In this document: piece after piece, positions 5,198 through 34,721 of the stretch | Numbering within the stretch: the first letter of the stretch is position 1 | Layout of the letters: the number at the start of each line of letters is the position of its first letter | Assembly (NCBI RefSeq): GCF_000143985.1 | Contig: NC_014364.1 | Span: forward strand, 930,001-994,000 | DNA length: 64,000 nucleotides | From: Sediminispirochaeta smaragdinae DSM 11293 | GTDB lineage: Bacteria; Spirochaetota; Spirochaetia; DSM-16054; Sediminispirochaetaceae | Direction: 5' to 3' | Translations under genes and position numbers: made by a program | The notes under the pieces: model-generated | Told to the model about the DNA's origin: nothing | What the model saw: the letters and a program-made list of their open reading frames with translations, nothing else | Databases searched by the model: none

Positions 5198-7513
5198 TTA
5201 CAAATAAACTTCCACACTTTCTCCCGCCTTAAGCTCCACCGCTTTTTCAGGCAGTAGGAGTTGTATCGGTTTTCCCTTGCCTTTATGTTCGAAACGGGCC
5301 TGCTTTTTTCCCACAGTAACTTCGATTCTGTTACCATGGTAATAAAAGGGGAACGAGAGCTTTTTCCACACTTCAGGTAAGGCAGGTTCAAAGCGGATTC
5401 CCCCTTCGTAAGCCTCTACGCCGGCAAAGCCCTGGATTGCCATCTGGCGGGCGATGCCGCATGCTGCGGTATGAATACCGCCGATGAAGGTCCCGCCGCT
5501 TATGGCCGGCTTGGAATTGTAGAGGTCGATGAGCCCTGCCTCGAGAAAATAACGGTAGGCCTCATCGGCGAAACCGAGGCGGGCGGCGACAATGGCATGG
5601 ACTGCCGGACTCAGGGATGAGCGGTGTTGTGTCCGTTTTTCATAATAGCGATAGTTGCGACGCATTGTCTCTTTATCGTACAGGTGGGGGTACTGGTAAA
5701 AAAGCTGTATCACATCGGCCTGCTTGATCACCTGGGTTTCGAAGGCAATGCCGTTTGGCCAGCCCCAGTACTCATTACTGTCTTTCAGGCGTCCGGCAAG
5801 CTCGGAGGGCGCTATATCCTCCAAATCAAAATAGCCGTCGAATTGAGGAAGTAACCCCGTCGTTGGATCTATGCCAGGAATGAAGAGTTTGTCGGCGATG
5901 TCCTTCCAGAGTGCGATTTCTTGTTCTTCAAGTTGTAGTAGCGATGTGAGCTCCTCAAGGCGCTTTGGCTGCTCTCGTTTCAAGCGTTGCAGAGTTTCAA
6001 GGGCCTCGGTAAGTGCAAAACGACACTGGACGTTGGTAAAGAGGTTGTTGTTTGCATTCTCATGGTACTCGTCGGGACCTAGTACCTGGTGGATCTCATA
6101 GCGGCCCTTGCGGGGAAGCCAGACCACCCTGCTGGCGATAAACCTGGCAACTTCAAAGAGGATTTCCGCCCCCTCTCCAACAGTGAAAGCGTGATCGTCG
6201 GTGGCAATGCGGTAGCTTCGTATGGCATAAGCAATATCTGGACTTATGTGAATTTGCCAGTCGTTGAAGTGGTTCCTGATTTTCCTTCCTGTCAGCACAT
6301 CTTTGAAAAAATAGTCGGGACAAAGCTCGTCCCCGCTGTCCCCGCTGATCCAGGCGTAAAAGGCCCCCTCGAAACCGAGTCGGGCCGCCTTGCGCCTTGC
6401 TCCGTCCAAGGTTTTGTAGCGGTAGATTAAAAGCCGTCGCGCGGTTTCCGGCTGGGCGTAGAGGTGTCCGGGGAGGTTGAATATCTCCTGGTCCCAAAAT
6501 GCCGCCCCCTGATATGCCTGGCAGGAGAGTCCTCTTGCTCCGATGGGAAGATGGTCACTATGGGCGGGGGTGGCAATGACGTTATGATAGGTATTGAAGT
6601 TGAGTATGCCCCAGGCATCATCATCGCTATCGACGGAAACAGTGTAACGCTCCCAGATTTTTTTCCAGCAGGCCTCGTGTTCCTCTCGTATGGCATCAAA
6701 ACCTTGCTCTAAAAACTGTTTTGCATCTTCTTCCGCCTCTTCCTGGGGAGTGGGGAGATCCCGGGAAGAGTAGATACTTACACCTACATCGATGGTTACG
6801 CTTTCGCCTGCCCTGAGGTCGAGGTGAAAAGGGCGCAGCATGATGCCTTCTTGTATCGTAAAATTGGTCCCTTCCTTTGGTTTTGTTCCATTCAGAAGAA
6901 GTGCCTGGCGGAGGGCTATATCGATACCGGACTGGCCTGTTCTCATATCGATGCCTGGGCCAGCGTTTGTAGCCCTTTGCGCCTTTGCAAGGGTTGCAAA
7001 GTGATTGCCATTGAGGCTCCACACATCGGTATCGATACCGACAACCGCGATTATGGAACAATCGGTATCTGCGGAGAGAACTATGCGCTGAGCAAGGAGA
7101 TGGATGCCGCTGATATTTGCCAGCCGAGTGAAGGAGCAGGTCATGCGCCCGCTTTCGGGAAGGTCGAAATCCATGGAACCTGATAGCAGTGCCTTTTCCA
7201 AATCAAGACGTAGGAAGCTTTTTGCCTCGGGAGCAGTTGAGGTTTGTAAGGCTTTTCCTTCTGCATTCTCTACCCGAAAATAGAGGCCGTTTGGTATAGA
7301 AGAGAGTTCGCTCCAGGTACCATCAGCGTTGTCCCAGGTATCCTCGACCACACAGGCAACATATGATTCTTTTCGCCAATGGGGAAAGGTTCCCCGGTAG
7401 CCGAGATATCCGTTTGCACAGAGGAAGTTGCTACCCATTGCAACGACTCCTTCCTCATTGTGTACACCCTGTTCGAGTAGCCAAGGACCTGCGAAGTGGG
7501 GCGAGCTCTTCAT
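5198..7513 (-). CDS. GH65 disaccharide phosphorylase (maltose/kojibiose/trehalose type)
   Basis: A 771-residue, signal-less (cytoplasmic) member of glycoside hydrolase family 65, which cleaves alpha-glucosides with inorganic phosphate to give beta-glucose-1-phosphate. The catalytic region is GPDEYHENANNN near residue 480, where the Glu of GPDE is the general acid. The length and the C-terminal beta-rich tail (FEHKGKGKPIQLLLP) fit the family. Which disaccharide is used cannot be fixed from the sequence. The start has AAGGAG nearby, and the promoter shares its control region with a divergent LacI repressor gene. There is no phosphoglucomutase gene in the window. Confidence 0.9.
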   Translation of the reverse strand: MKSSPHFAGPWLLEQGVHNEEGVVAMGSNFLCANGYLGYRGTFPHWRKESYVACVVEDTWDNADGTWSELSSIPNGLYFRVENAEGKALQTSTAPEAKSFLRLDLEKALLSGSMDFDLPESGRMTCSFTRLANISGIHLLAQRIVLSADTDCSIIAVVGIDTDVWSLNGNHFATLAKAQRATNAGPGIDMRTGQSGIDIALRQALLLNGTKPKEGTNFTIQEGIMLRPFHLDLRAGESVTIDVGVSIYSSRDLPTPQEEAEEDAKQFLEQGFDAIREEHEACWKKIWERYTVSVDSDDDAWGILNFNTYHNVIATPAHSDHLPIGARGLSCQAYQGAAFWDQEIFNLPGHLYAQPETARRLLIYRYKTLDGARRKAARLGFEGAFYAWISGDSGDELCPDYFFKDVLTGRKIRNHFNDWQIHISPDIAYAIRSYRIATDDHAFTVGEGAEILFEVARFIASRVVWLPRKGRYEIHQVLGPDEYHENANNNLFTNVQCRFALTEALETLQRLKREQPKRLEELTSLLQLEEQEIALWKDIADKLFIPGIDPTTGLLPQFDGYFDLEDIAPSELAGRLKDSNEYWGWPNGIAFETQVIKQADVIQLFYQYPHLYDKETMRRNYRYYEKRTQHRSSLSPAVHAIVAARLGFADEAYRYFLEAGLIDLYNSKPAISGGTFIGGIHTAACGIARQMAIQGFAGVEAYEGGIRFEPALPEVWKKLSFPFYYHGNRIEVTVGKKQARFEHKGKGKPIQLLLPEKAVELKAGESVEVYL

Positions 7514-13718: not shown

Positions 13719-14978
13719 ATGGAACATGAGGTAAAGATTAAAATTGAGAATCTTTACAAGATTTTTGGTCCGAACCCTAAACGGGTTTTTCCCCTTCTTG
13801 AGCAGGGGCGGACAAAAGAGGAGATTCTCAAAAAGAGCGGCTGTGTCGTTGCTGTCAACGATGTCAGCTTTGAAATTGGAAAGAGGGAAACCTTTGTCAT
13901 TATGGGGCTTTCGGGAAGTGGAAAATCAACGCTTATCCGTTGCCTGAATCGTCTGATAAATCCCACGGCGGGAAAGATTCTGATCGATGGGGAAAACATT
14001 CTCGATATGGACAAAGAGCAGTTGCGAAAGGTCCGGCGGTATACCCTTTCGATGGTTTTTCAGCATTTTGGCCTTCTTCCGCATCGGACGGTGCTTGAAA
14101 ATGTGGAATTTGGACTCGAAATCAGCGGCATGGACAAAGAGACCAGGAGGGAGAAGGCCTTATCTTCTCTGGACCTGGTAGGTTTAAAAGGCTACGAAAA
14201 GAGTATGCCCGACGAGCTTTCTGGTGGTATGCAGCAGCGGGTCGGGCTTGCCAGGGCCCTTGCAAACGATCCTGAAGTGCTTCTGATGGATGAAGCCTTT
14301 AGTGCTCTGGATCCTCTTATCAGGACACAGATGCAGGATGAGCTTTTAACCCTTCAGGCCAAGATGCATAAGACCATCGTTTTTATCACTCACGACCTTG
14401 ATGAGGCCCTCAAACTTGGCGACCGTATACTCATTCTTGGTCCCGGAGGTGTTATCAGACAGATCGGAACCCCGGAGGAAATACTCTCCGATCCGGCAGA
14501 CGATTATGTGAAGGCATTCGTTCAGAATGTGGATAAGTCAAAGATCATCACCGTCTCTTCAATCATGCGCAACGCACAGGTTGTAAATATTGATAAAGAT
14601 GGTCCGGGGACTGCAACACGGTTGATGGAAAAGGCTTCCATGGATCGTATCGTCGTTGTTGATTCGGACAGAAAATTGCTTGGTATTGTGAAGATCGACG
14701 ATACGGTACGTCTCCAGAAGCAGAAGGTGAAGAGCCTTGAATCGATTTTGTTCGACCAGGTCTACACGGCTCACCCTACAACCCCAATATCCGAGCTACT
14801 TCCCGTGGCGTTCGATTCAGAAGATCCTATTGCCGTGATCGACGAGGATGGGGTCTTCCATGGGGCCGTGGATAGGGGTGCGATTATCGCCGAGGTGAGC
14901 GACGAAAACGACGACGGTGGTCCTGTTATCCTCAGTGAGTTCATTGAACAGAACGGAAACGGAGGAAAGGACATATGA
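13719..14978 (+). CDS. proV: Glycine betaine/proline ABC transporter ATPase with CBS domains
   Basis: A 419-residue ATPase of the OpuAA/ProV type that powers osmoprotectant uptake. Walker A GLSGSGKST is at 63-71, the signature is LSGGMQQR (about 167-174), Walker B is VLLMDEAFSALD, and it starts with the family's extended N-terminus (KIFGPNPKRVFPLLEQG). The last ~140 residues hold a pair of CBS motifs thought to sense ionic strength or nucleotide. The stop overlaps the permease start (ATGA). Three genes, proV-proW-proX, form a complete operon closed by a terminator. Confidence 0.95.
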   Translation: MEHEVKIKIENLYKIFGPNPKRVFPLLEQGRTKEEILKKSGCVVAVNDVSFEIGKRETFVIMGLSGSGKSTLIRCLNRLINPTAGKILIDGENILDMDKEQLRKVRRYTLSMVFQHFGLLPHRTVLENVEFGLEISGMDKETRREKALSSLDLVGLKGYEKSMPDELSGGMQQRVGLARALANDPEVLLMDEAFSALDPLIRTQMQDELLTLQAKMHKTIVFITHDLDEALKLGDRILILGPGGVIRQIGTPEEILSDPADDYVKAFVQNVDKSKIITVSSIMRNAQVVNIDKDGPGTATRLMEKASMDRIVVVDSDRKLLGIVKIDDTVRLQKQKVKSLESILFDQVYTAHPTTPISELLPVAFDSEDPIAVIDEDGVFHGAVDRGAIIAEVSDENDDGGPVILSEFIEQNGNGGKDI

Positions 14979-15829
14979 TATTGGAGACGTTACGAGATAT
15001 TTTGGATGTCGGTGGATGGTTCGAGGCTATTATCGATTGGATGACCCTCCATTGGGACGGCTTTTTCGATGGTGTAAGTGCTATTGTTCAAGCTGTTCTA
15101 AGTGCGTTCTTGGCTGTCTTCTCTTTTCCGCCACCGATTGTTTTGGTTCTTTTGCTTGCGGCTCTTGCCTGGTGGCTTGTTAGTCGTGGAGCAGGAATCC
15201 TGAGCTTTATAGGGTTCTCCCTTATCTGGATCATGGGCTTGTGGGGGGAAACTATGGAAACCCTCTCACTTGTCGTGACCTCCGTCATCCTTGCTTTGCT
15301 CATTGCCGTGCCGGTTGGAATTTGGTCTTCGAAAAAGGATACGGTACAGCGCATTGTGCGCCCCGTCCTTGACTTCATGCAGACCCTGCCGGCCTTTGTC
15401 TATCTGATTCCCGCCGTACTCTTTTTCAAACTTGGGCCGGTTCCCGGTGTTATCGCCACGTTGATTTTTGCCATGCCTCCTTCGGTTCGACTTACCAACC
15501 TCGGTATCCGTCAGGTTCCCAAGGAGATTAAGGAGGCTGCCAAAAGCTTTGGGGCCACAAGCCATCAAATGCTTCTTAAGGCTGAACTACCGGTTGCCCT
15601 TCCCACCATCCTTGCCGGGGTGAATCAGACCATCATGCTGGCCCTCTCCATGGTAGTGATCGCCGGTATGATTGGTGCCGGTGGCCTTGGAAATGAGGTC
15701 CTTAAGGGAATTACACAGTTAAAAATTGATCAGGGTTTTGAAGGGGGAATTGCCATAGTCATACTCGCAATGTACCTCGACAGGGTAACCCAGGCACTTG
15801 GAAAAGTCGCCGGCACCCGTCGGCGTTAA
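14975..15829 (+). CDS. proW: Glycine betaine/proline ABC transporter permease
   Basis: A 284-residue inner-membrane permease with about six transmembrane segments and the EAA loop that contacts the ATPase (EAAKSFGATSHQMLLKAELP). The short hydrophilic N-terminus before the first helix resembles OpuAB/ProW. It overlaps proV by 4 bp and is followed 33 bp later by the binding-protein gene. Confidence 0.94.
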   Translation: MILETLRDILDVGGWFEAIIDWMTLHWDGFFDGVSAIVQAVLSAFLAVFSFPPPIVLVLLLAALAWWLVSRGAGILSFIGFSLIWIMGLWGETMETLSLVVTSVILALLIAVPVGIWSSKKDTVQRIVRPVLDFMQTLPAFVYLIPAVLFFKLGPVPGVIATLIFAMPPSVRLTNLGIRQVPKEIKEAAKSFGATSHQMLLKAELPVALPTILAGVNQTIMLALSMVVIAGMIGAGGLGNEVLKGITQLKIDQGFEGGIAIVILAMYLDRVTQALGKVAGTRRR

Positions 15830-15862
15830 GGATATAGTGATGAATTTTTTTCAGGAGGTTTC

Positions 15863-16765
15863 ATGAAGTTTACTAACAAATTGTTGCTTGCACTGATGGC
15901 CGTGACCCTCGTGTTTGCAGTCTCTTGCTCTCAGAAGGATGAGAAAGCGGGCGAATCCGCTTCGGCAAAAGGTGCAGCTTCTGCCGAGGAAAAAACGGCG
16001 GAGCTTGTCTATGTTAATTGGGCGGAAGGGGTCGCCTTCACCAATCTTGCGAAGGTGGTGCTCGAGGATAAGATGGGTTACGATGTCACCATCACTGCCA
16101 CCGACGTAGCCCCGGGGTATGTTTCCATTGCACAGGGAGACAAAGATGCCTTTATGGAGACGTGGCTCCCTGTTCTTCATAAGGATTATTACGATGAGTA
16201 CAAAGACGATATCGTAGATTTGGGACATGTCTTCGAAGGAACCCAAAGCGGACTTGTTGTCCCTGCTTACATGTCGATCGACAAGATCAGCGAGCTCAAT
16301 TCCATCAAGGATGATCTCGGCGGCAAGATTACCGGTATCGATGCCGGGGCCGGTGTTATGAAGACAACCGAAGAGGTTATTGAGCTTTACGATCTCGATC
16401 TCAGTCTCATGTCTTCCAGTGGTCCCGCGATGGCGGCCGCTTTAAAGGATGCCTATGCAAAAAAAGAGCCGATCGTCGTTACCGGCTGGACCCCGCACTG
16501 GATGTTTGGAAAGTGGGATCTGAAGTTTCTACAGCAGGACCCGGATAAAACGGTATGGGGAAAAGGAAATATCCATATTATGGCCCGCAAAAACATCCGC
16601 GAAGATAAGCCTACCCTTGCCACATTTCTATCGAATATGTTTTTTGATGAGGCTCAGCTTGGAGACCTGATGGTCAAAATTGAAGAGTCCGATGACGATA
16701 TCGAAGTTGTTACACGTCAGTGGATGAGCGATCATTCCGACCTCATCGATAGTTGGATTCCGTAA
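15863..16765 (+). CDS. proX: Glycine betaine-binding lipoprotein
   Basis: A 300-residue substrate-binding protein of the OpuAC family. The signal peptide ends in the lipobox FAVSC with Cys22 as the acylation site, followed by a low-complexity linker. The mature part starts LVYVNWAEGVAF, and later VTGWTPHWMF carries the aromatic cage residues typical of betaine binding. It has AGGAGG upstream. It completes the proVWX operon and would be anchored in the inner membrane facing the periplasm. Confidence 0.93.
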   Translation: MKFTNKLLLALMAVTLVFAVSCSQKDEKAGESASAKGAASAEEKTAELVYVNWAEGVAFTNLAKVVLEDKMGYDVTITATDVAPGYVSIAQGDKDAFMETWLPVLHKDYYDEYKDDIVDLGHVFEGTQSGLVVPAYMSIDKISELNSIKDDLGGKITGIDAGAGVMKTTEEVIELYDLDLSLMSSSGPAMAAALKDAYAKKEPIVVTGWTPHWMFGKWDLKFLQQDPDKTVWGKGNIHIMARKNIREDKPTLATFLSNMFFDEAQLGDLMVKIEESDDDIEVVTRQWMSDHSDLIDSWIP

Positions 16766-22794: not shown

Positions 22795-24882
22795 CTACTG
22801 CTCCGAGTTATCGGCTTCAAGCTGCAGCGCATAATAGGCCCCGATAAAACCGGCGGCAGACCATGCCTGATATCTTTTTCCCATCGGCCTGCCGGTTCTG
22901 CCATGTACCCATTCGTTGAACTCCCACTCATGTTCAATTCCTTCATGATTGACCAGTGCAAGCCGAAATAATTCTTGCTGAGCAAGGTCTCTGAGGCCGA
23001 GGCGGCTAATGAACATCACCCAATAGGCCCCAATAAAGGGCCATATACCTCCGTTGTGGTAATGGTGGGGAAGGTTGAGTAAATTTACGGTATAATAGGT
23101 GCGCCAAGCAGGATCCCCTGCATTGACAGGCGGATAAAGATTGGCCACCGGAGCCGGTTCGTTCACCCCGACCCCCCACATAAACTGGAAGGCAATCTTT
23201 GCCCGCTCGGCGGATAGCACATTGAACAGGACGGCAAGAATATTGCCGTAAACATCGCAGCGCCAGTCAAAACCGAAGGGGGTAATCTCGGCAAGAAGAT
23301 AGGATGTGTCTCCCATGGAGAATTGCTGATCGGAAAAAGCTTTGATGGCATCGCTATGTATCGAGGGCCAGAACTTGCGGTTAATGGTTTCTTTGATCTG
23401 TTGGGCCATCCGCAGCCGCTGCCCTGCGGTGTCGAAGTCTCCCAATAGTTCGGCAATTCTGCCGTGGCAGAGATTTGCATTGTACCAGAGGACCTCGTCG
23501 TATAGGATATTATAGCTTCTTCCGAAAAGATCCATCCAATCACCTGCTTCCGGGATTTCAAGAAGCGAATCGTTGTTACTGTCCTGGGCTTCAAGCCAAT
23601 TCATGGCATTTTTGATTTCACCCGCCCAGTTGCGAAGAAACTGGTAGTCTCTGGTTTCTCGTATGAAATGATAGAAGGCGATCACCAGCCACAGCCCGGA
23701 ATCGATTGAGGCGATGCCTCCAATACCGGAATAATCCGGCTCTCCAGTGTCGATTGAAACATTACTCGGCACCTGTCCTCTTGGCGTGATATGGGAAAGC
23801 AGGGTTGTCATGGTTGCTTGCTGGCATCGTTGAATATCAGGGTCCTTGAGGGATAGGCTGTTCATGACAACAATCGCTCCGTCTCTGGCCCATATACTTT
23901 TGTAGTTTGAATCGGTAGCGTCGAGGATATTGTCATCGAGGCTGCAGGCAGAAAAACCTTTTGGCGTAATACAGCGTTTTAAAGCGTTTATCGCTTCCTG
24001 ATAGGCCTCATTGATCAGCCCGTGCTGTGATTCACTCAGGCTCTTAAAAGCGTCTGAGTTCACTACACTATGGAATCTGGGATCGAATTGGCTGTGGACT
24101 AGTTCTATATCGCTGATATCCGCAATTTCTTCGATGAGTTCGTAGTGGAGAAGCCCGTCGAGAACCCCATCGGCAAAAGGCCTCCCAGCCGTATAGGTTG
24201 GCAACTCCATAGTCGCCAAAAACAGCTCCGGCTGAGCGTTCTCGACAATGATTCCCCTGACACCTCTGATGGTAAACATGGAGCTGTCGTTGCCGGTATC
24301 TCCGGCGACGATGACCTCTTCGGCTTCGATTTCTATTCGTTTCAGAAGCCAGGCAAGGGCATTTCCCTTATTGGCGTACTGGGGAAGAATATCAAGATCT
24401 CTGCTTGATGAGTAGACCACATTGACCGATAGCCCGAGTCCTCGCAGGGCATCTTTGATTTCTTGAAGGCGCTCTGGTGTGGCGTCATGGATATACCAGC
24501 TTGATTTAAAGGCGTTTTGATATTTGGGCGGCTGTTCCTCGGTATCGGAAAATGAATCGAGGCAAGTCCTGACCGTTTTCAGATCCCATCCCGTATTGAG
24601 GGTTTCGGCGAAGCGTTTAATCAATTCCCGCTTCCGAAAGTCGTAGATAAGGGTTCCTACTCCGCAGATGAGATAGTCGGGATCCGGAAGGTCGCTCTGC
24701 TTCAGCAGCTCAAAGGTATGCGGGAGCAGCCTGCCACTGTTGTAAACAAGCAGGGGGGCGGCGCTTCCTTTTTTCCTGCGCAATCCCTCCCATGTTCGCT
24801 TAAACGAGACCGTAGCATCCGGCTTGCCAATCAATGTTCCGTCAAGGTCGGAAGAAAAAAGTCGTGCCGCTTTCTTATTCAT
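22795..24882 (-). CDS. Fusion: mannosylfructose/sucrose-phosphate phosphatase (HAD) and glycosidase-like domain
   Basis: A 695-residue cytoplasmic two-domain protein. Residues 1 to about 250 form a HAD-IIB phosphatase: SSDLDGT with Asp12/Asp14, a conserved VYNSGR, a SSRDLDILP block and GDTGND near 197. As I recall it, this resembles Agrobacterium mannosylfructose-phosphate phosphatase most closely, and plant/cyanobacterial sucrose phosphatases less so. Residues ~280-690 form an (alpha/alpha)6 glycosidase-like domain (SIWARDGAIV, GQVPSNV, SIDSGLWLV, IPEAGDWMDLFG, YNILYDEVLWYNA) of the GH100/glycogen-debranching type. It overlaps the 3' end of the synthase gene by 4 bp. The product of the first domain is a plausible substrate for the second. 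Confidence 0.75.
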   Translation of the reverse strand: MNKKAARLFSSDLDGTLIGKPDATVSFKRTWEGLRRKKGSAAPLLVYNSGRLLPHTFELLKQSDLPDPDYLICGVGTLIYDFRKRELIKRFAETLNTGWDLKTVRTCLDSFSDTEEQPPKYQNAFKSSWYIHDATPERLQEIKDALRGLGLSVNVVYSSSRDLDILPQYANKGNALAWLLKRIEIEAEEVIVAGDTGNDSSMFTIRGVRGIIVENAQPELFLATMELPTYTAGRPFADGVLDGLLHYELIEEIADISDIELVHSQFDPRFHSVVNSDAFKSLSESQHGLINEAYQEAINALKRCITPKGFSACSLDDNILDATDSNYKSIWARDGAIVVMNSLSLKDPDIQRCQQATMTTLLSHITPRGQVPSNVSIDTGEPDYSGIGGIASIDSGLWLVIAFYHFIRETRDYQFLRNWAGEIKNAMNWLEAQDSNNDSLLEIPEAGDWMDLFGRSYNILYDEVLWYNANLCHGRIAELLGDFDTAGQRLRMAQQIKETINRKFWPSIHSDAIKAFSDQQFSMGDTSYLLAEITPFGFDWRCDVYGNILAVLFNVLSAERAKIAFQFMWGVGVNEPAPVANLYPPVNAGDPAWRTYYTVNLLNLPHHYHNGGIWPFIGAYWVMFISRLGLRDLAQQELFRLALVNHEGIEHEWEFNEWVHGRTGRPMGKRYQAWSAAGFIGAYYALQLEADNSEQ

Positions 24883-26165
24883 TCATCCTCCTCAAACGCA
24901 TCTGTACAGGTATCGACGGCGTCAAGCAGCTGCTGTGCAATCCCTGTCCAGGTAAATCTGGATCGTGCAAGTGCCGCCCCTCTGCTTGAAAGTCGTCTGC
25001 GAAGACGTCGGTAGTGTAGGGCTTGATAGATGGCTATTCCAAACTCCTCACTGTCGAAGGGGTCGGCAATGAGGGCGTTGTCCCCAAAGCTGAGAACCCT
25101 GGCGAGCCCTCCGTGGGCGGTCACAACTACCGGGGTCCCGCTTGCCATTGCCTCAATACTTGTCATGCCGAAGGGTTCGTATCGACTTGAGAGAACAAAT
25201 AGATCTGCCGCACGGTAGTAATCGGGAAGATCTTCGTCGGCGATGAAACCGGTAAACCTGACTTGCTTTCCCAATCCATATTGAGAAACCCGCTCGAGAA
25301 GTGTTTCGTAGATTGCCTGTTCCGTTTCATTTCTGTCTTCATATCCTATCGCCAGGACCAGCTCTGCTTCGGGAATTCGTTGTACGGCAACACTAAAGGC
25401 ATCAATCAACAGATCGAAGCCCTTATTATGAGCGAGCCTGCTGACCGCAAAAATCGTTGCCGGACCGAAGCCGAGGCGTTCTTTTCGTGCCGCCTTTGTA
25501 GAGGGCCCGACGGGAAAGAAGCGATTGTCGTCGTAGCCAGGCGGGATCATTCGTATTTTCTCCTGGTCGATATCGTAGGCTTCTTGGATGAGATCCACTT
25601 GGATCGGGGTTGTTGCGGTAATCAGATCGCAGGAGCGGTAGAGCTGCCCCTCTGTTCGTATGCGCTCCGTGAAATTATAACGCTCTTCAAATTCTTCCTC
25701 ACTGTCGGGAAAATCGGTAAGCATCTGTTTCTGTTTCCAGGTTCCAATGGAGTGAGGTGTATGAACATGGGGAATTGAGAGCTGGTGTGCCAGATGCTGG
25801 CCTGCAACACCAGCATCCCAGTAGTGGCTATTGATAAAACTATAGGTGAGCTTTTCTTTTTTGATGCGTTTTCTTGCGTTTTCAACCCATTCGGGAATGG
25901 ATCGGATAAGGTATTCTTTCGGGATAAAGGCTTTTCCGCCGCAGGGGACCCTCAGAACCCGAACATGTTCGTCTACTATGTCGGTGTCCGGTTGGTCCTC
26001 AAAACGTCGGGTCCAAATGTCGACATCATAACCGAACTGTCCCAGTTTTTTGGCCAGTTCGAGGATGTAAACCACCTGTCCTCCCGTGTCGGGAGCTCCC
26101 AGAGGTGGGTCGGCCGCCACGTATCCATGGGTAGAGATCATCATAATTCGTTTTTTATCATGCAT
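24879..26165 (-). CDS. GT4 synthase, mannosylfructose-phosphate (or sucrose-phosphate) synthase
   Basis: A 428-residue cytoplasmic glycosyltransferase joining a nucleotide sugar to fructose-6-phosphate. Key segments are ISTHGYVAADPPLGAPDTGGQ, NSHYWDAGVAGQ, HTPHSIGTWK, IPPGYDDNRFFP and the GT-B donor site SSRYEPFGMTSIEAMASG. From memory the whole length matches Agrobacterium MfpsA (GDP-mannose donor) better than classical sucrose-phosphate synthases, but I could not run a comparison. ATG 26165 has GAGGAGG in front; the frame extends upstream to 26270 without a ribosome site. It is the first gene of a two-gene operon with the fused phosphatase. The product would be a compatible solute. Confidence 0.78.
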   Translation of the reverse strand: MHDKKRIMMISTHGYVAADPPLGAPDTGGQVVYILELAKKLGQFGYDVDIWTRRFEDQPDTDIVDEHVRVLRVPCGGKAFIPKEYLIRSIPEWVENARKRIKKEKLTYSFINSHYWDAGVAGQHLAHQLSIPHVHTPHSIGTWKQKQMLTDFPDSEEEFEERYNFTERIRTEGQLYRSCDLITATTPIQVDLIQEAYDIDQEKIRMIPPGYDDNRFFPVGPSTKAARKERLGFGPATIFAVSRLAHNKGFDLLIDAFSVAVQRIPEAELVLAIGYEDRNETEQAIYETLLERVSQYGLGKQVRFTGFIADEDLPDYYRAADLFVLSSRYEPFGMTSIEAMASGTPVVVTAHGGLARVLSFGDNALIADPFDSEEFGIAIYQALHYRRLRRRLSSRGAALARSRFTWTGIAQQLLDAVDTCTDAFEEDE

Positions 26166-32189: not shown

Positions 32190-32218
32190 TTGACCCATAC
32201 TCTTTCGCTCAGTATAGT
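32190..32218 (+). promoter_or_regulatory. Promoter of the lacI-gtfA operon
   Basis: TTGACC (32190-32195), a 17-bp spacer and TATAGT (32213-32218). The predicted start of transcription (about 32225) abuts the operator at 32227-32244. Confidence 0.75.
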
Positions 32219-32226
32219 AACCGATA

Positions 32227-32244
32227 AATGTAAGAGCTTACATT
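32227..32244. promoter_or_regulatory. Operator of the sucrose repressor
   Basis: AATGTAAGAGCTTACATT is an exact 8-bp inverted repeat with a 2-base AG centre, right at the transcription start and 12 bp before the repressor's GTG. The position suits autorepression of lacI-gtfA. Confidence 0.7.
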
Positions 32245-32255
32245 CGGAGCATGTT

Positions 32256-33257
32256 GTGAAAAACGATTCAACGATTTATGATGTCGCCCGGGAAGCCGGG
32301 GTCAGCATTGCCACCGTTTCCCGGGTCATGAATCACCCCGAACGGGTAGCCCCTGTTACCCGTTCACGCATTCTCTCGGTCATGACAAGGCTCGATTTTT
32401 CTCCGAGCTCGGAAGCGGTAGCCAGGGCCCGGATAGGTTTGAAACGGGTAGGTGTGGTAGCGCCCTTTGCCTGGTCCTACTCTTTTGTCCAACGAATTCG
32501 GGGGCTCAGCAGCCATTTATCTCCCCGCGAGTATGAGATAACCACCTATTCGGTGGAAAATCGCAGCCAGCTTGATTCTGTTTTTGCAATGCTTTCGGCA
32601 GGGGAACGGGTCGACGGCGTTGTTGTTATGGCTCTTCCGGTTGACAAAGAAGCCCTTATGCTTTTTCGCAGACGGGGTATGCCTCTGGTGAGCCTTGAAA
32701 CGCGTATTAAATATGTCTGCTCAATCCTTTCGGATAACCAGGAGGGAGGAAGGATTGCCGCCGAGTACCTGCTTGGTAAGGGGTTCCGCCATCCTGCTTT
32801 CCTTGGTGAAGGGGGGCATCCCGATTATGTAGTCGATTCAGCCCGTAGCCGCTTTCAGGCCTTTTCCGAGAGGCTTGGCGCCGAAGGCATAGAGATACCG
32901 GAGGAGCATATGTGCTTTCACTATACCGGGGCCGATTATGCACGTGGGGCGGCCCGTAAGCTTATTTCGGGAAAATTCCTTCCCGATGTGGTTTTTGCCG
33001 CCAGTGACTATGAGGCCCTGATCCTTTATCGCATCGCCCGGAACGCGGGACTTCAGGTGCCTGGTAATCTTGCTATCCTCGGGTACGACAACATTGAGGC
33101 GGCCGAGTTTATCGGCCTTTCGACGGTCGATCAGCAGCTTGACGAGTCCGGACGACTTGCCGCCGAAATGATCGAGCTGGCCTTCCGAGGCAGTTTCGGA
33201 CAGATCCCGGAAGTGATACGACTTCCTGTAACCCTTATCGAACGTGATACCGCCTAA
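32256..33257 (+). CDS. LacI-family repressor of sucrose phosphorylase
   Basis: A 333-residue repressor with the HTH STIYDVAREAGVSIATVSRVM at the N-terminus and a sugar-sensing domain ending in NLAILGYDNIEAAEFIGLSTVDQQ. GTG 32256 is chosen because GGAG lies six bases upstream and the HTH then starts at the usual distance; the longer frame from 32190 begins inside the promoter. It is 21 bp upstream of gtfA in one operon, so it probably responds to sucrose or a related sugar. Confidence 0.9.
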   Translation: MKNDSTIYDVAREAGVSIATVSRVMNHPERVAPVTRSRILSVMTRLDFSPSSEAVARARIGLKRVGVVAPFAWSYSFVQRIRGLSSHLSPREYEITTYSVENRSQLDSVFAMLSAGERVDGVVVMALPVDKEALMLFRRRGMPLVSLETRIKYVCSILSDNQEGGRIAAEYLLGKGFRHPAFLGEGGHPDYVVDSARSRFQAFSERLGAEGIEIPEEHMCFHYTGADYARGAARKLISGKFLPDVVFAASDYEALILYRIARNAGLQVPGNLAILGYDNIEAAEFIGLSTVDQQLDESGRLAAEMIELAFRGSFGQIPEVIRLPVTLIERDTA

Positions 33258-33278
33258 TATGAGGAGGAACCTTTATAC

Positions 33279-34721
33279 ATGAAAAACGGCGTTCAACTTA
33301 TCACCTATCCCGATAGTCTCGGCATCAATCTCGAGGAACTATCTACTGCCCTGGAACGCTATTTCCCCGATCTTTTTACCGGGATTCATCTCCTTCCCTT
33401 TTATCCCTCTTCTGCGGACCGAGGCTTTGCACCCCTTGGGTATGATCGAGTCGATCCGCAGTTCGGTGATTGGAACGCGGTGGAAGGCCTTGCCGGCAGG
33501 TATGATATCGTGGTTGATTTTATGGTCAACCACATCTCGCGGCACTCCCCTCAATTCCTTGATTTCCTTAAACGGGGAGAGAAAAGCCTCTGGGCGGACC
33601 TTTTTCTCAATGTTCGAAAGTTTCATCCTTCGGGAGAGATCCCTCCCGATGATCTGGCAAAAATCTATACCAGAAAACCTCGGGCACCTCTTACCAAAGT
33701 GGTACATCCGGACGGAAGTGAAGATACCCTGTGGTGTACCTTCAGCGAGGAACAGATCGATCTCGATATTGCCTCTCCCGTCGGTACGGCGTTTCTGGAG
33801 GATAACCTTCGTTCCCTTTGCGGTCATGGCATATCGATGCTTCGCCTCGACGCCTTCGCCTACGTGACGAAGAGGCTCGGTACCAACTGCTTCTTTGTGG
33901 AGCCCGATGTATGGGAGCTCCTGCATCGAATCCAAACGATTGTGGCCGAATATGGTGTGGAGATCTTGCCCGAGATCCATGAGCACTACTCGATTCAGCT
34001 GAAGCTTGCGAACAAGGGCTATCGCGTATATGATTTCGCCCTTCCCATGCTGTTGCTTCATACCATCTTCAGCGGCAGCAGCAGAAGGCTCAAGGAGTGG
34101 CTAAAGATTTCTCCGCACAACCAAATCACCACCCTGGATACCCACGACGGTATCGGAGTTGTCGATGCGGCCGATCTTCTTTCTTCTGAGGAGATAGAGA
34201 AAACCGTTGATGCTCTTTATGAACGGGGTTCCAATGTCAACCGGAGATATTCGTCGGAAGAGTACAACAACCTCGATATCTATCAGATCAACTGTACCTA
34301 CTATTCCGCTACCGGTGAAGATGATGATGCCTACATCCTTTCAAGGGCCATCCAGTTTTTCGCACCCGGTATTCCCCAGGTCTATTATGTCGGAGCACTT
34401 TCGGGACGGAACGATACCGATCTCATTGAGCAAACCAAGCAGGGTCGGGATATCAACCGCCATCCCTACGGCCTCGATGAGATTGCTGTCGAAATAGAGC
34501 GGCCGGTGAATAAACGGCTTTTTCGGCTCATGCGCTTTCGCTCACATACCCCGGCCTTTGAGGGCTCCTTTTCCCTTGCCGATAGTGACGACAGCAGGCT
34601 CAGCATCGTGTGGACGGGAAACGGTGGGGATCAGGCGATACTTGATGTGGACCTGAATGAACTCCGATGTGAGATTCGATATCGGGATGCTCTCGGCAAA
34701 GAGGAGCGGTGGATCTGTTAG
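33279..34721 (+). CDS. gtfA: Sucrose phosphorylase (GH13_18)
   Basis: A 480-residue cytoplasmic enzyme converting sucrose and phosphate to alpha-glucose-1-phosphate and fructose. Catalytic residues are the Asp nucleophile in LRLDAFAY (about 190), the Glu in ILPEIHEHY (about 232) and the Asp in TLDTHDGIG (about 289). From memory it aligns along its full length with Streptococcus mutans GtfA. Close relatives act on sucrose-6-phosphate or glucosylglycerol, so the acceptor should be tested. AGGAGG precedes the start. It ends overlapping the convergent TIGR03545-like gene by 4 bp. Confidence 0.92.
   Translation: MKNGVQLITYPDSLGINLEELSTALERYFPDLFTGIHLLPFYPSSADRGFAPLGYDRVDPQFGDWNAVEGLAGRYDIVVDFMVNHISRHSPQFLDFLKRGEKSLWADLFLNVRKFHPSGEIPPDDLAKIYTRKPRAPLTKVVHPDGSEDTLWCTFSEEQIDLDIASPVGTAFLEDNLRSLCGHGISMLRLDAFAYVTKRLGTNCFFVEPDVWELLHRIQTIVAEYGVEILPEIHEHYSIQLKLANKGYRVYDFALPMLLLHTIFSGSSRRLKEWLKISPHNQITTLDTHDGIGVVDAADLLSSEEIEKTVDALYERGSNVNRRYSSEEYNNLDIYQINCTYYSATGEDDDAYILSRAIQFFAPGIPQVYYVGALSGRNDTDLIEQTKQGRDINRHPYGLDEIAVEIERPVNKRLFRLMRFRSHTPAFEGSFSLADSDDSRLSIVWTGNGGDQAILDVDLNELRCEIRYRDALGKEERWIC

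What the first reader, a model, noticed from the sequence alone, without database searches (positions are those of the whole stretch)
22795..26165. Probable mannosylfructose locus with the phosphatase fused to a glycosidase-like domain
Seen: a GT4 synthase gene overlaps, by 4 bp, a gene encoding an N-terminal HAD phosphatase and a C-terminal (alpha/alpha)6 domain. Known: Agrobacterium MfpsA/MfpsB make mannosylfructose as a compatible solute; as I recall their sequences, both the synthase and the phosphatase domain here resemble these more than sucrose enzymes. Inference: one polypeptide both makes the sugar (dephosphorylation) and can break it down, a built-in turnover switch for osmotic down-shock. 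I do not know of this fusion being described.
Basis: partly seen in the sequence, partly recalled or inferred. Interest (0 to 1): 0.75.

Follow-up and report, generated by a model that had tools for sequence, protein, structure and literature searches.

The report
Sugar-making and sugar-breaking enzymes fused together
A salt-loving bacterium encodes a sugar synthase next to one protein that joins the phosphatase finishing a protective sugar (probably mannosylfructose) to an invertase-like enzyme that probably breaks it down; the same set occurs in at least six bacterial phyla, and I found no published description of it.

Summary
A GT4 synthase gene (24879-26165, -) overlaps by 4 bp a gene (22795-24882, -) encoding an S6PP-type HAD phosphatase (residues 7-249) joined to an (alpha/alpha)6 domain (about 281-690). 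By profile and by predicted fold that domain is closest to GH100 alkaline/neutral invertases. Catalytic residues are invariant in both halves. The genome length equals that of Sediminispirochaeta smaragdinae, an obligate halophile.

The mannosylfructose reading holds at sequence level. The synthase is 61% identical to a rhizobial protein matching recalled Agrobacterium MfpsA, against about 30% for sucrose-phosphate synthases, and carries 26 of 32 MfpsA-diagnostic residues against 2. The phosphatase is nearer MfpsB (44%) than SPP (34%).

The fusion is not unique. 49 of 80 retrieved loci carry it, across six phyla. Eleven have the hydrolase as a separate gene at the locus, and Alphaproteobacteria have a GH32-like gene instead. 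In Verrucomicrobiota all 22 genomes with the synthase also have the hydrolase. A PfkB kinase lies near the module in 19 loci.

Best explanation: a synthesis-turnover module for mannosylfructose, with hydrolysis probably gated by ions. Donor, substrate and regulation are inferred, not shown. I rate it a new variant of a known kind.

The parts
24879..26165 (-). GT4 glycosyltransferase, 428 aa, MfpsA-like (mannosylfructose-6-phosphate synthase, inferred). EX7E motif E330/E338; R243 and K248; acceptor-phosphate-type residues K83, Y115, S139, R168
22795..24882 (-). Fusion gene, 695 aa: HAD phosphatase plus GH100-like hydrolase
24136..24864 (-). HAD-IIB / S6PP domain (residues 7-249), MfpsB-like; D12, D14, K172, D195, D199 invariant in 26 fusions
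22813..24042 (-). GH100-like (alpha/alpha)6 domain (residues about 281-690)
23530..23532 (-). Codon of D451, predicted general acid (equivalent of InvA Asp188)
   Evidence: InvA residues from PMC6995568
22912..22914 (-). Codon of E657, predicted general base (equivalent of InvA Glu414)
   Evidence: InvA residues from PMC6995568
24879..24882 (-). ATGA overlap: stop of the GT4 gene and start of the fusion gene (translational coupling likely)

Best explanation
A two-gene synthesis-and-turnover module for the compatible solute mannosylfructose. The GT4 transfers mannose from GDP-mannose to fructose-6-phosphate. The N-terminal HAD domain of the second protein removes the phosphate. Its C-terminal GH100-like domain hydrolyses the alpha-mannosyl (1,2) beta-fructofuranoside bond with acid D451 and base E657, giving mannose and fructose, which re-enter metabolism (through a PfkB kinase in many relatives). 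The likeliest control, by analogy with the salt-inhibited Synechocystis invertase, is that ions suppress hydrolysis at high salinity and release it at down-shock, so the fused protein sets pool size. Shown by computation: domain content, intact catalytic residues, MfpsA/MfpsB kinship, conserved linkage of synthase and hydrolase, GH100-like fold. Inferred: donor, substrate of the hydrolase, ion gating.
For: GT: 61% identical over 427 residues to the rhizobial MfpsA-type protein, 30-31% to sucrose-phosphate synthases of Halothermothrix and Thermosynechococcus. It falls in one clade with rhizobial MfpsA, 98/99 support against 10 more distant members of the same GT family, and apart from SPS. 26 of 32 diagnostic residues match MfpsA, 2 match SPS. 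HAD: in a fully supported clade with rhizobial MfpsB; 16 of 20 diagnostic residues against 1. Hydrolase: GH100 hits by profile and fold, with InvA Asp188 and Glu414 equivalents invariant in fused and separate copies. Linkage: 49 of 80 loci fused and 11 with the hydrolase as a separate gene at the locus; 22 of 22 synthase-positive Verrucomicrobiota genomes hold the hydrolase, while only 25 of the 289 genomes sampled hold it. A GH32-like gene stands in for it in six alphaproteobacterial loci and a Paracoccus plasmid, and a PfkB kinase lies near the module in 19 loci. The genome has a mannose-1-phosphate guanylyltransferase. The host is an obligate halophile that uses mannose and fructose but not sucrose (PMC3035371). 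Ion-inhibited invertase controls sucrose pools in Synechocystis (PMC6753628).
Against: No activity has been measured. GH100 invertases are reported to be specific for sucrose (PMC6753628), so acting on mannosylfructose needs a changed sugar pocket. To my knowledge only one MFPS has been assayed (Agrobacterium), and rhizobial genomes with MfpsA lack this hydrolase, so it is not needed for synthesis. The GH model has low confidence (pLDDT under 50) around the active site. Synthesis and hydrolysis in one polypeptide is a futile cycle unless regulated, and no regulatory element was identified.
Confidence: 0.62

Rival explanations
1. It is a sucrose module: the GT4 makes sucrose-6-phosphate, the HAD makes sucrose, and the GH100-like domain is an ordinary invertase.
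For: The C-terminal domain's nearest solved relatives are sucrose-specific invertases. The NCBIfam models that score best are SPS and SPP, although below their cut-offs, as they also are for the MfpsA and MfpsB orthologues.
Against: Synthase and phosphatase are phylogenetically with MfpsA/MfpsB and carry their diagnostic residues. The GH domain is only 17-20% identical to invertases over the aligned fold.
Confidence: 0.17
2. The synthase-phosphatase pair makes mannosylfructose, but the GH domain acts on something else, such as an imported glycoside.
For: A standalone relative (36% identical) sits in a Deinococcus plasmid next to a ROK kinase gene and near sugar ABC importer genes.
Against: Near-perfect linkage of this hydrolase subfamily to the synthase across phyla, as a fusion or a neighbour, and replacement by a GH32-like gene in Alphaproteobacteria.
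Confidence: 0.12
3. The GH domain is a catalytically dead scaffold that modulates the phosphatase or docks the synthase, as the SPP-like domain of plant SPS may do.
For: Precedent in plants (PMC4493782 abstract).
Against: Both predicted catalytic residues and the surrounding motifs are invariant in 26 fusions and in separate single-domain copies.
Confidence: 0.05
4. The GH domain works as a transglycosylase and lengthens the disaccharide into an oligosaccharide.
For: The (alpha/alpha)6 fold also hosts phosphorylases and other activities, and the residues after the acid differ from invertases (DLFGRS in place of DRRMG).
Against: Both the acid and the base of an inverting hydrolase are kept; no oligosaccharide gene was seen with it.
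Confidence: 0.04

Closest known systems
Agrobacterium MfpsA/MfpsB mannosylfructose pathway (Torres and Salerno 2007, PNAS 104:14318; reference seen, paper itself not readable here)
   Same: Orthologous synthase (61% identity) and phosphatase (44%), with adjacent overlapping genes.
   Different: The rhizobial phosphatase is a single-domain protein of about 258 aa, and no relative of the hydrolase was found in the rhizobial genomes searched.
GH100 alkaline/neutral invertases (Anabaena InvA/InvB, Arabidopsis CINV)
   Same: (alpha/alpha)6 fold and both catalytic residues.
   Different: 17-20% identity. The motif after the acid differs, and a three-residue piece near the Arg430 position is missing. 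Here fused to, or next to, a phosphatase.
Cyanobacterial SPS/SPP plus invertase regulation of sucrose pools
   Same: Synthase, phosphatase and an ion-inhibited hydrolase set the pool (PMC6753628).
   Different: Separate proteins and a different sugar; ion control is untested here.
Bacterial SPS-SPP fusion enzymes (TIGR02471/TIGR02472; L009-L020 here)
   Same: GT4 and HAD partners.
   Different: There the synthase is fused to the phosphatase; here the phosphatase is fused to a hydrolase. Synthase identity about 29%.

Membership tests
Mannosylfructose-phosphate synthase (MfpsA) | GT4 retaining fold with EX7E motif | tested here: met
Mannosylfructose-phosphate synthase (MfpsA) | Groups with rhizobial MfpsA and not with SPS or MshA | tested here: met
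   The MfpsA reference is a sequence recalled from memory that matched a real rhizobial genome at 98% over 438 residues
Mannosylfructose-phosphate synthase (MfpsA) | Uses GDP-mannose and fructose-6-phosphate | not testable with these tools
   Acceptor-phosphate-type residues K83, Y115, S139, R168 conserved; donor unproven
Mannosylfructose-phosphate phosphatase (MfpsB) | HAD-IIB/S6PP fold with catalytic residues, grouping with MfpsB and not SPP | tested here: met
Sucrose-phosphate synthase/phosphatase | Reaches the NCBIfam equivalog cut-offs (TIGR02472 576; TIGR01485 183.65) | tested here: not met
   219.4 and 160.2 bits
GH100 | Passes the Pfam Glyco_hydro_100 gathering score | tested here: met
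   66.3 bits against 23.6, matched over profile positions 256-428 of 435
GH100 | Catalytic Asp (InvA D188) and Glu (InvA E414) | tested here: met
   D451 and E657
GH100 | Hydrolyses sucrose specifically | not testable with these tools
   Residues next to the acid differ from invertases

The most novel reading that the evidence does not exclude
The C-terminal domain is a mannosylfructose hydrolase, a GH100-related enzyme that cleaves an alpha-mannoside, and its fusion to the phosphatase makes one protein both finish and destroy the same osmolyte under ionic control. This would be the ancestral form of a pathway so far known only from its hydrolase-less rhizobial branch.
Probability: 0.42. Interest if true: 0.75.

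Novelty: new variant of a known kind. Interest (0 to 1): 0.6.

Why it matters
Mannosylfructose is known to me as an osmolyte from a single bacterial group, and to my knowledge nobody has named an enzyme that breaks it down. If this reading is right, the sugar is used across at least six phyla, many of the carriers marine or from saline sites, its degrading enzyme is identified, and a single polypeptide offers a compact system for studying how cells set osmolyte levels. It would also extend GH100, an invertase family, to another sugar.

Tried and rejected
Sucrose system: kept as a rival, disfavoured by trees and diagnostic residues. Unique or artefactual fusion: rejected by 49 fused loci. GH domain as a glucan debranching enzyme (PF06202 passes its cut-off): rejected because profile and fold searches rank GH100 first. 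Dead domain: disfavoured by invariant catalytic residues. Secondary loss of the GH domain in rhizobia: only partly supported. The synthase tree nests rhizobia inside fusion carriers (99/97 and 97/92), but the AU test is marginal (p 0.048), and the phosphatase tree puts MfpsB as sister to all fusions.

Full report
Observation. Two minus-strand genes lie at 22795-26165. The first encodes a 428-residue GT4 enzyme. Its stop codon overlaps the start of the second by ATGA. The second encodes 695 residues: PF05116 S6PP at 7-249, then a region whose best Pfam match is Glyco_hydro_100, with weaker GDE_C. AlphaFold2 models built from 26 fusion relatives and 25 hydrolase relatives gave pTM 0.83 each, with low confidence near the hydrolase active site. 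Foldseek matched 1s2o (sucrose phosphatase) for the N-terminal half, and its 28 best hits for the isolated C-terminal domain were all GH100 invertases.

Host. The genome is one contig of 4,653,970 bases, exactly the published length for Spirochaeta (now Sediminispirochaeta) smaragdinae. That species is obligately halophilic (1-10% NaCl, optimum 5%) and uses fructose and mannose but not sucrose (PMC3035371). The identification rests on genome length and on the spirochaete relatives found.

Which sugar? I wrote out the same protein from memory as a lead and tested it. It matched a real Hyphomicrobiales genome at 98% over 438 residues in a 454-residue frame, with a 258-residue HAD frame overlapping downstream, so the reference is real. 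The window GT4 is 61% identical to it and 30-31% identical to characterised SPS and to MshA. In a tree of 80 proteins SPS and MshA fall outside, while rhizobial MfpsA falls with the window protein. A careful tree of 41 proteins gives 98/99 support for the clade holding both. Of 32 columns that separate rhizobial MfpsA from SPS, the window has the MfpsA letter at 26 and the SPS letter at 2. For the HAD domain the figures are 16 and 1 of 20, and the phosphatase tree joins fusions and rhizobial MfpsB with full support. The genome also encodes a mannose-1-phosphate guanylyltransferase for GDP-mannose.

What the C-terminal domain does. A profile of 25 relatives ranks GH100 invertases first, well ahead of anything else. 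The residues aligned with InvA Asp188 and Glu414 (PMC6995568) are D451 and E657, invariant in fused and separate copies. The stretch after the acid (DLFGRS against DRRMG) and a three-residue gap near the InvA Arg430 position differ from invertases. [quoted passage not shown] If the substrate is mannosylfructose, the sugar pocket must have changed. This is a prediction, not a result.

The module across bacteria. One genome-collection scan gave 80 loci. Of these, 49 carry the HAD-GH fusion next to the synthase (25 Bacteroidota, 13 Verrucomicrobiota, 7 Spirochaetota, 2 Chloroflexota, 1 Planctomycetota, 1 Sumerlaeota), and 11 more carry the same hydrolase as a separate gene, mostly Planctomycetota and Verrucomicrobiota. 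Gene order varies: synthase first in Spirochaetota and Verrucomicrobiota, fusion first in Bacteroidota and Chloroflexota. In 289 sampled Verrucomicrobiota genomes, 25 have the hydrolase and 22 the synthase, and all 22 are among the 25. In 296 sampled Spirochaetota only 2, the window's own genome included, have a close fusion, which suggests horizontal transfer. Six alphaproteobacterial loci and a Paracoccus plasmid lack this hydrolase and carry a GH32-like gene beside the HAD and GT genes. A PfkB kinase lies near the module in 19 loci. The pattern of synthase, phosphatase, one hydrolase of either unrelated family, and often a kinase points to hydrolysis of the product as part of the pathway.

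Mechanism. I propose synthesis by GT4, dephosphorylation by HAD and hydrolysis by the GH domain, with hydrolysis repressed by high ion levels as in Synechocystis, where invertase falls to about 15% activity at 145 mM NaCl and its loss raises sucrose (PMC6753628). Synthase, phosphatase and linkage are well supported by sequence. The hydrolase substrate is likely. Ion gating is an analogy.

Evolution. The synthase tree nests rhizobial MfpsA inside fusion carriers, sister to a Planctomycetota fusion locus (99/97), but the AU test is marginal (p 0.048), and the phosphatase tree puts MfpsB outside the fusions. Either rhizobia lost the hydrolase or they keep an older unfused state. Searched rhizobial genomes have no copy.

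Novelty. Full-text searches found five papers naming mannosylfructose and none describing this fusion. The library lacks subscription papers. I class it as a new variant of a known kind: known enzyme families in a new, widespread and functionally suggestive arrangement.

Noticed in passing
window 5198-7513 (-): GH65 protein whose closest solved relatives are 4ktp/4ktr (705 bits), known to me as the Bacillus selenitireducens glucosylglycerol phosphorylase; possible breakdown of a second compatible solute.
   Followed up: partly
window 32190-34721 (+): LacI regulator followed by a GH13 phosphorylase close to both sucrose and glucosylglycerol phosphorylases (7qqj, 7xdq), although the species is reported not to use sucrose.
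   Followed up: partly
window 13719-16765 (+): Glycine betaine/proline-type ABC transporter genes (ATPase, permease, binding protein, by reading of the ORFs) about 6 kb from the module, separated from it by an efflux-type operon.
   Followed up: no
L021 1444-3763 and L023 3-2559: Two Spirochaetota genomes have a distant GH100-like gene (28-30% identity) overlapping a different GT4 gene, possibly another synthase-hydrolase pair.
   Followed up: no
L044 8849-11098: A Planctomycetota locus has a second S6PP-type phosphatase and a phosphofructokinase gene after the fusion gene.
   Followed up: no
L146 3361-5208 and relatives: Beta-propeller hydrolase (weak GH32, weaker GH43/GH130-type matches) in the alphaproteobacterial version of the module; substrate unclear.
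   Followed up: partly
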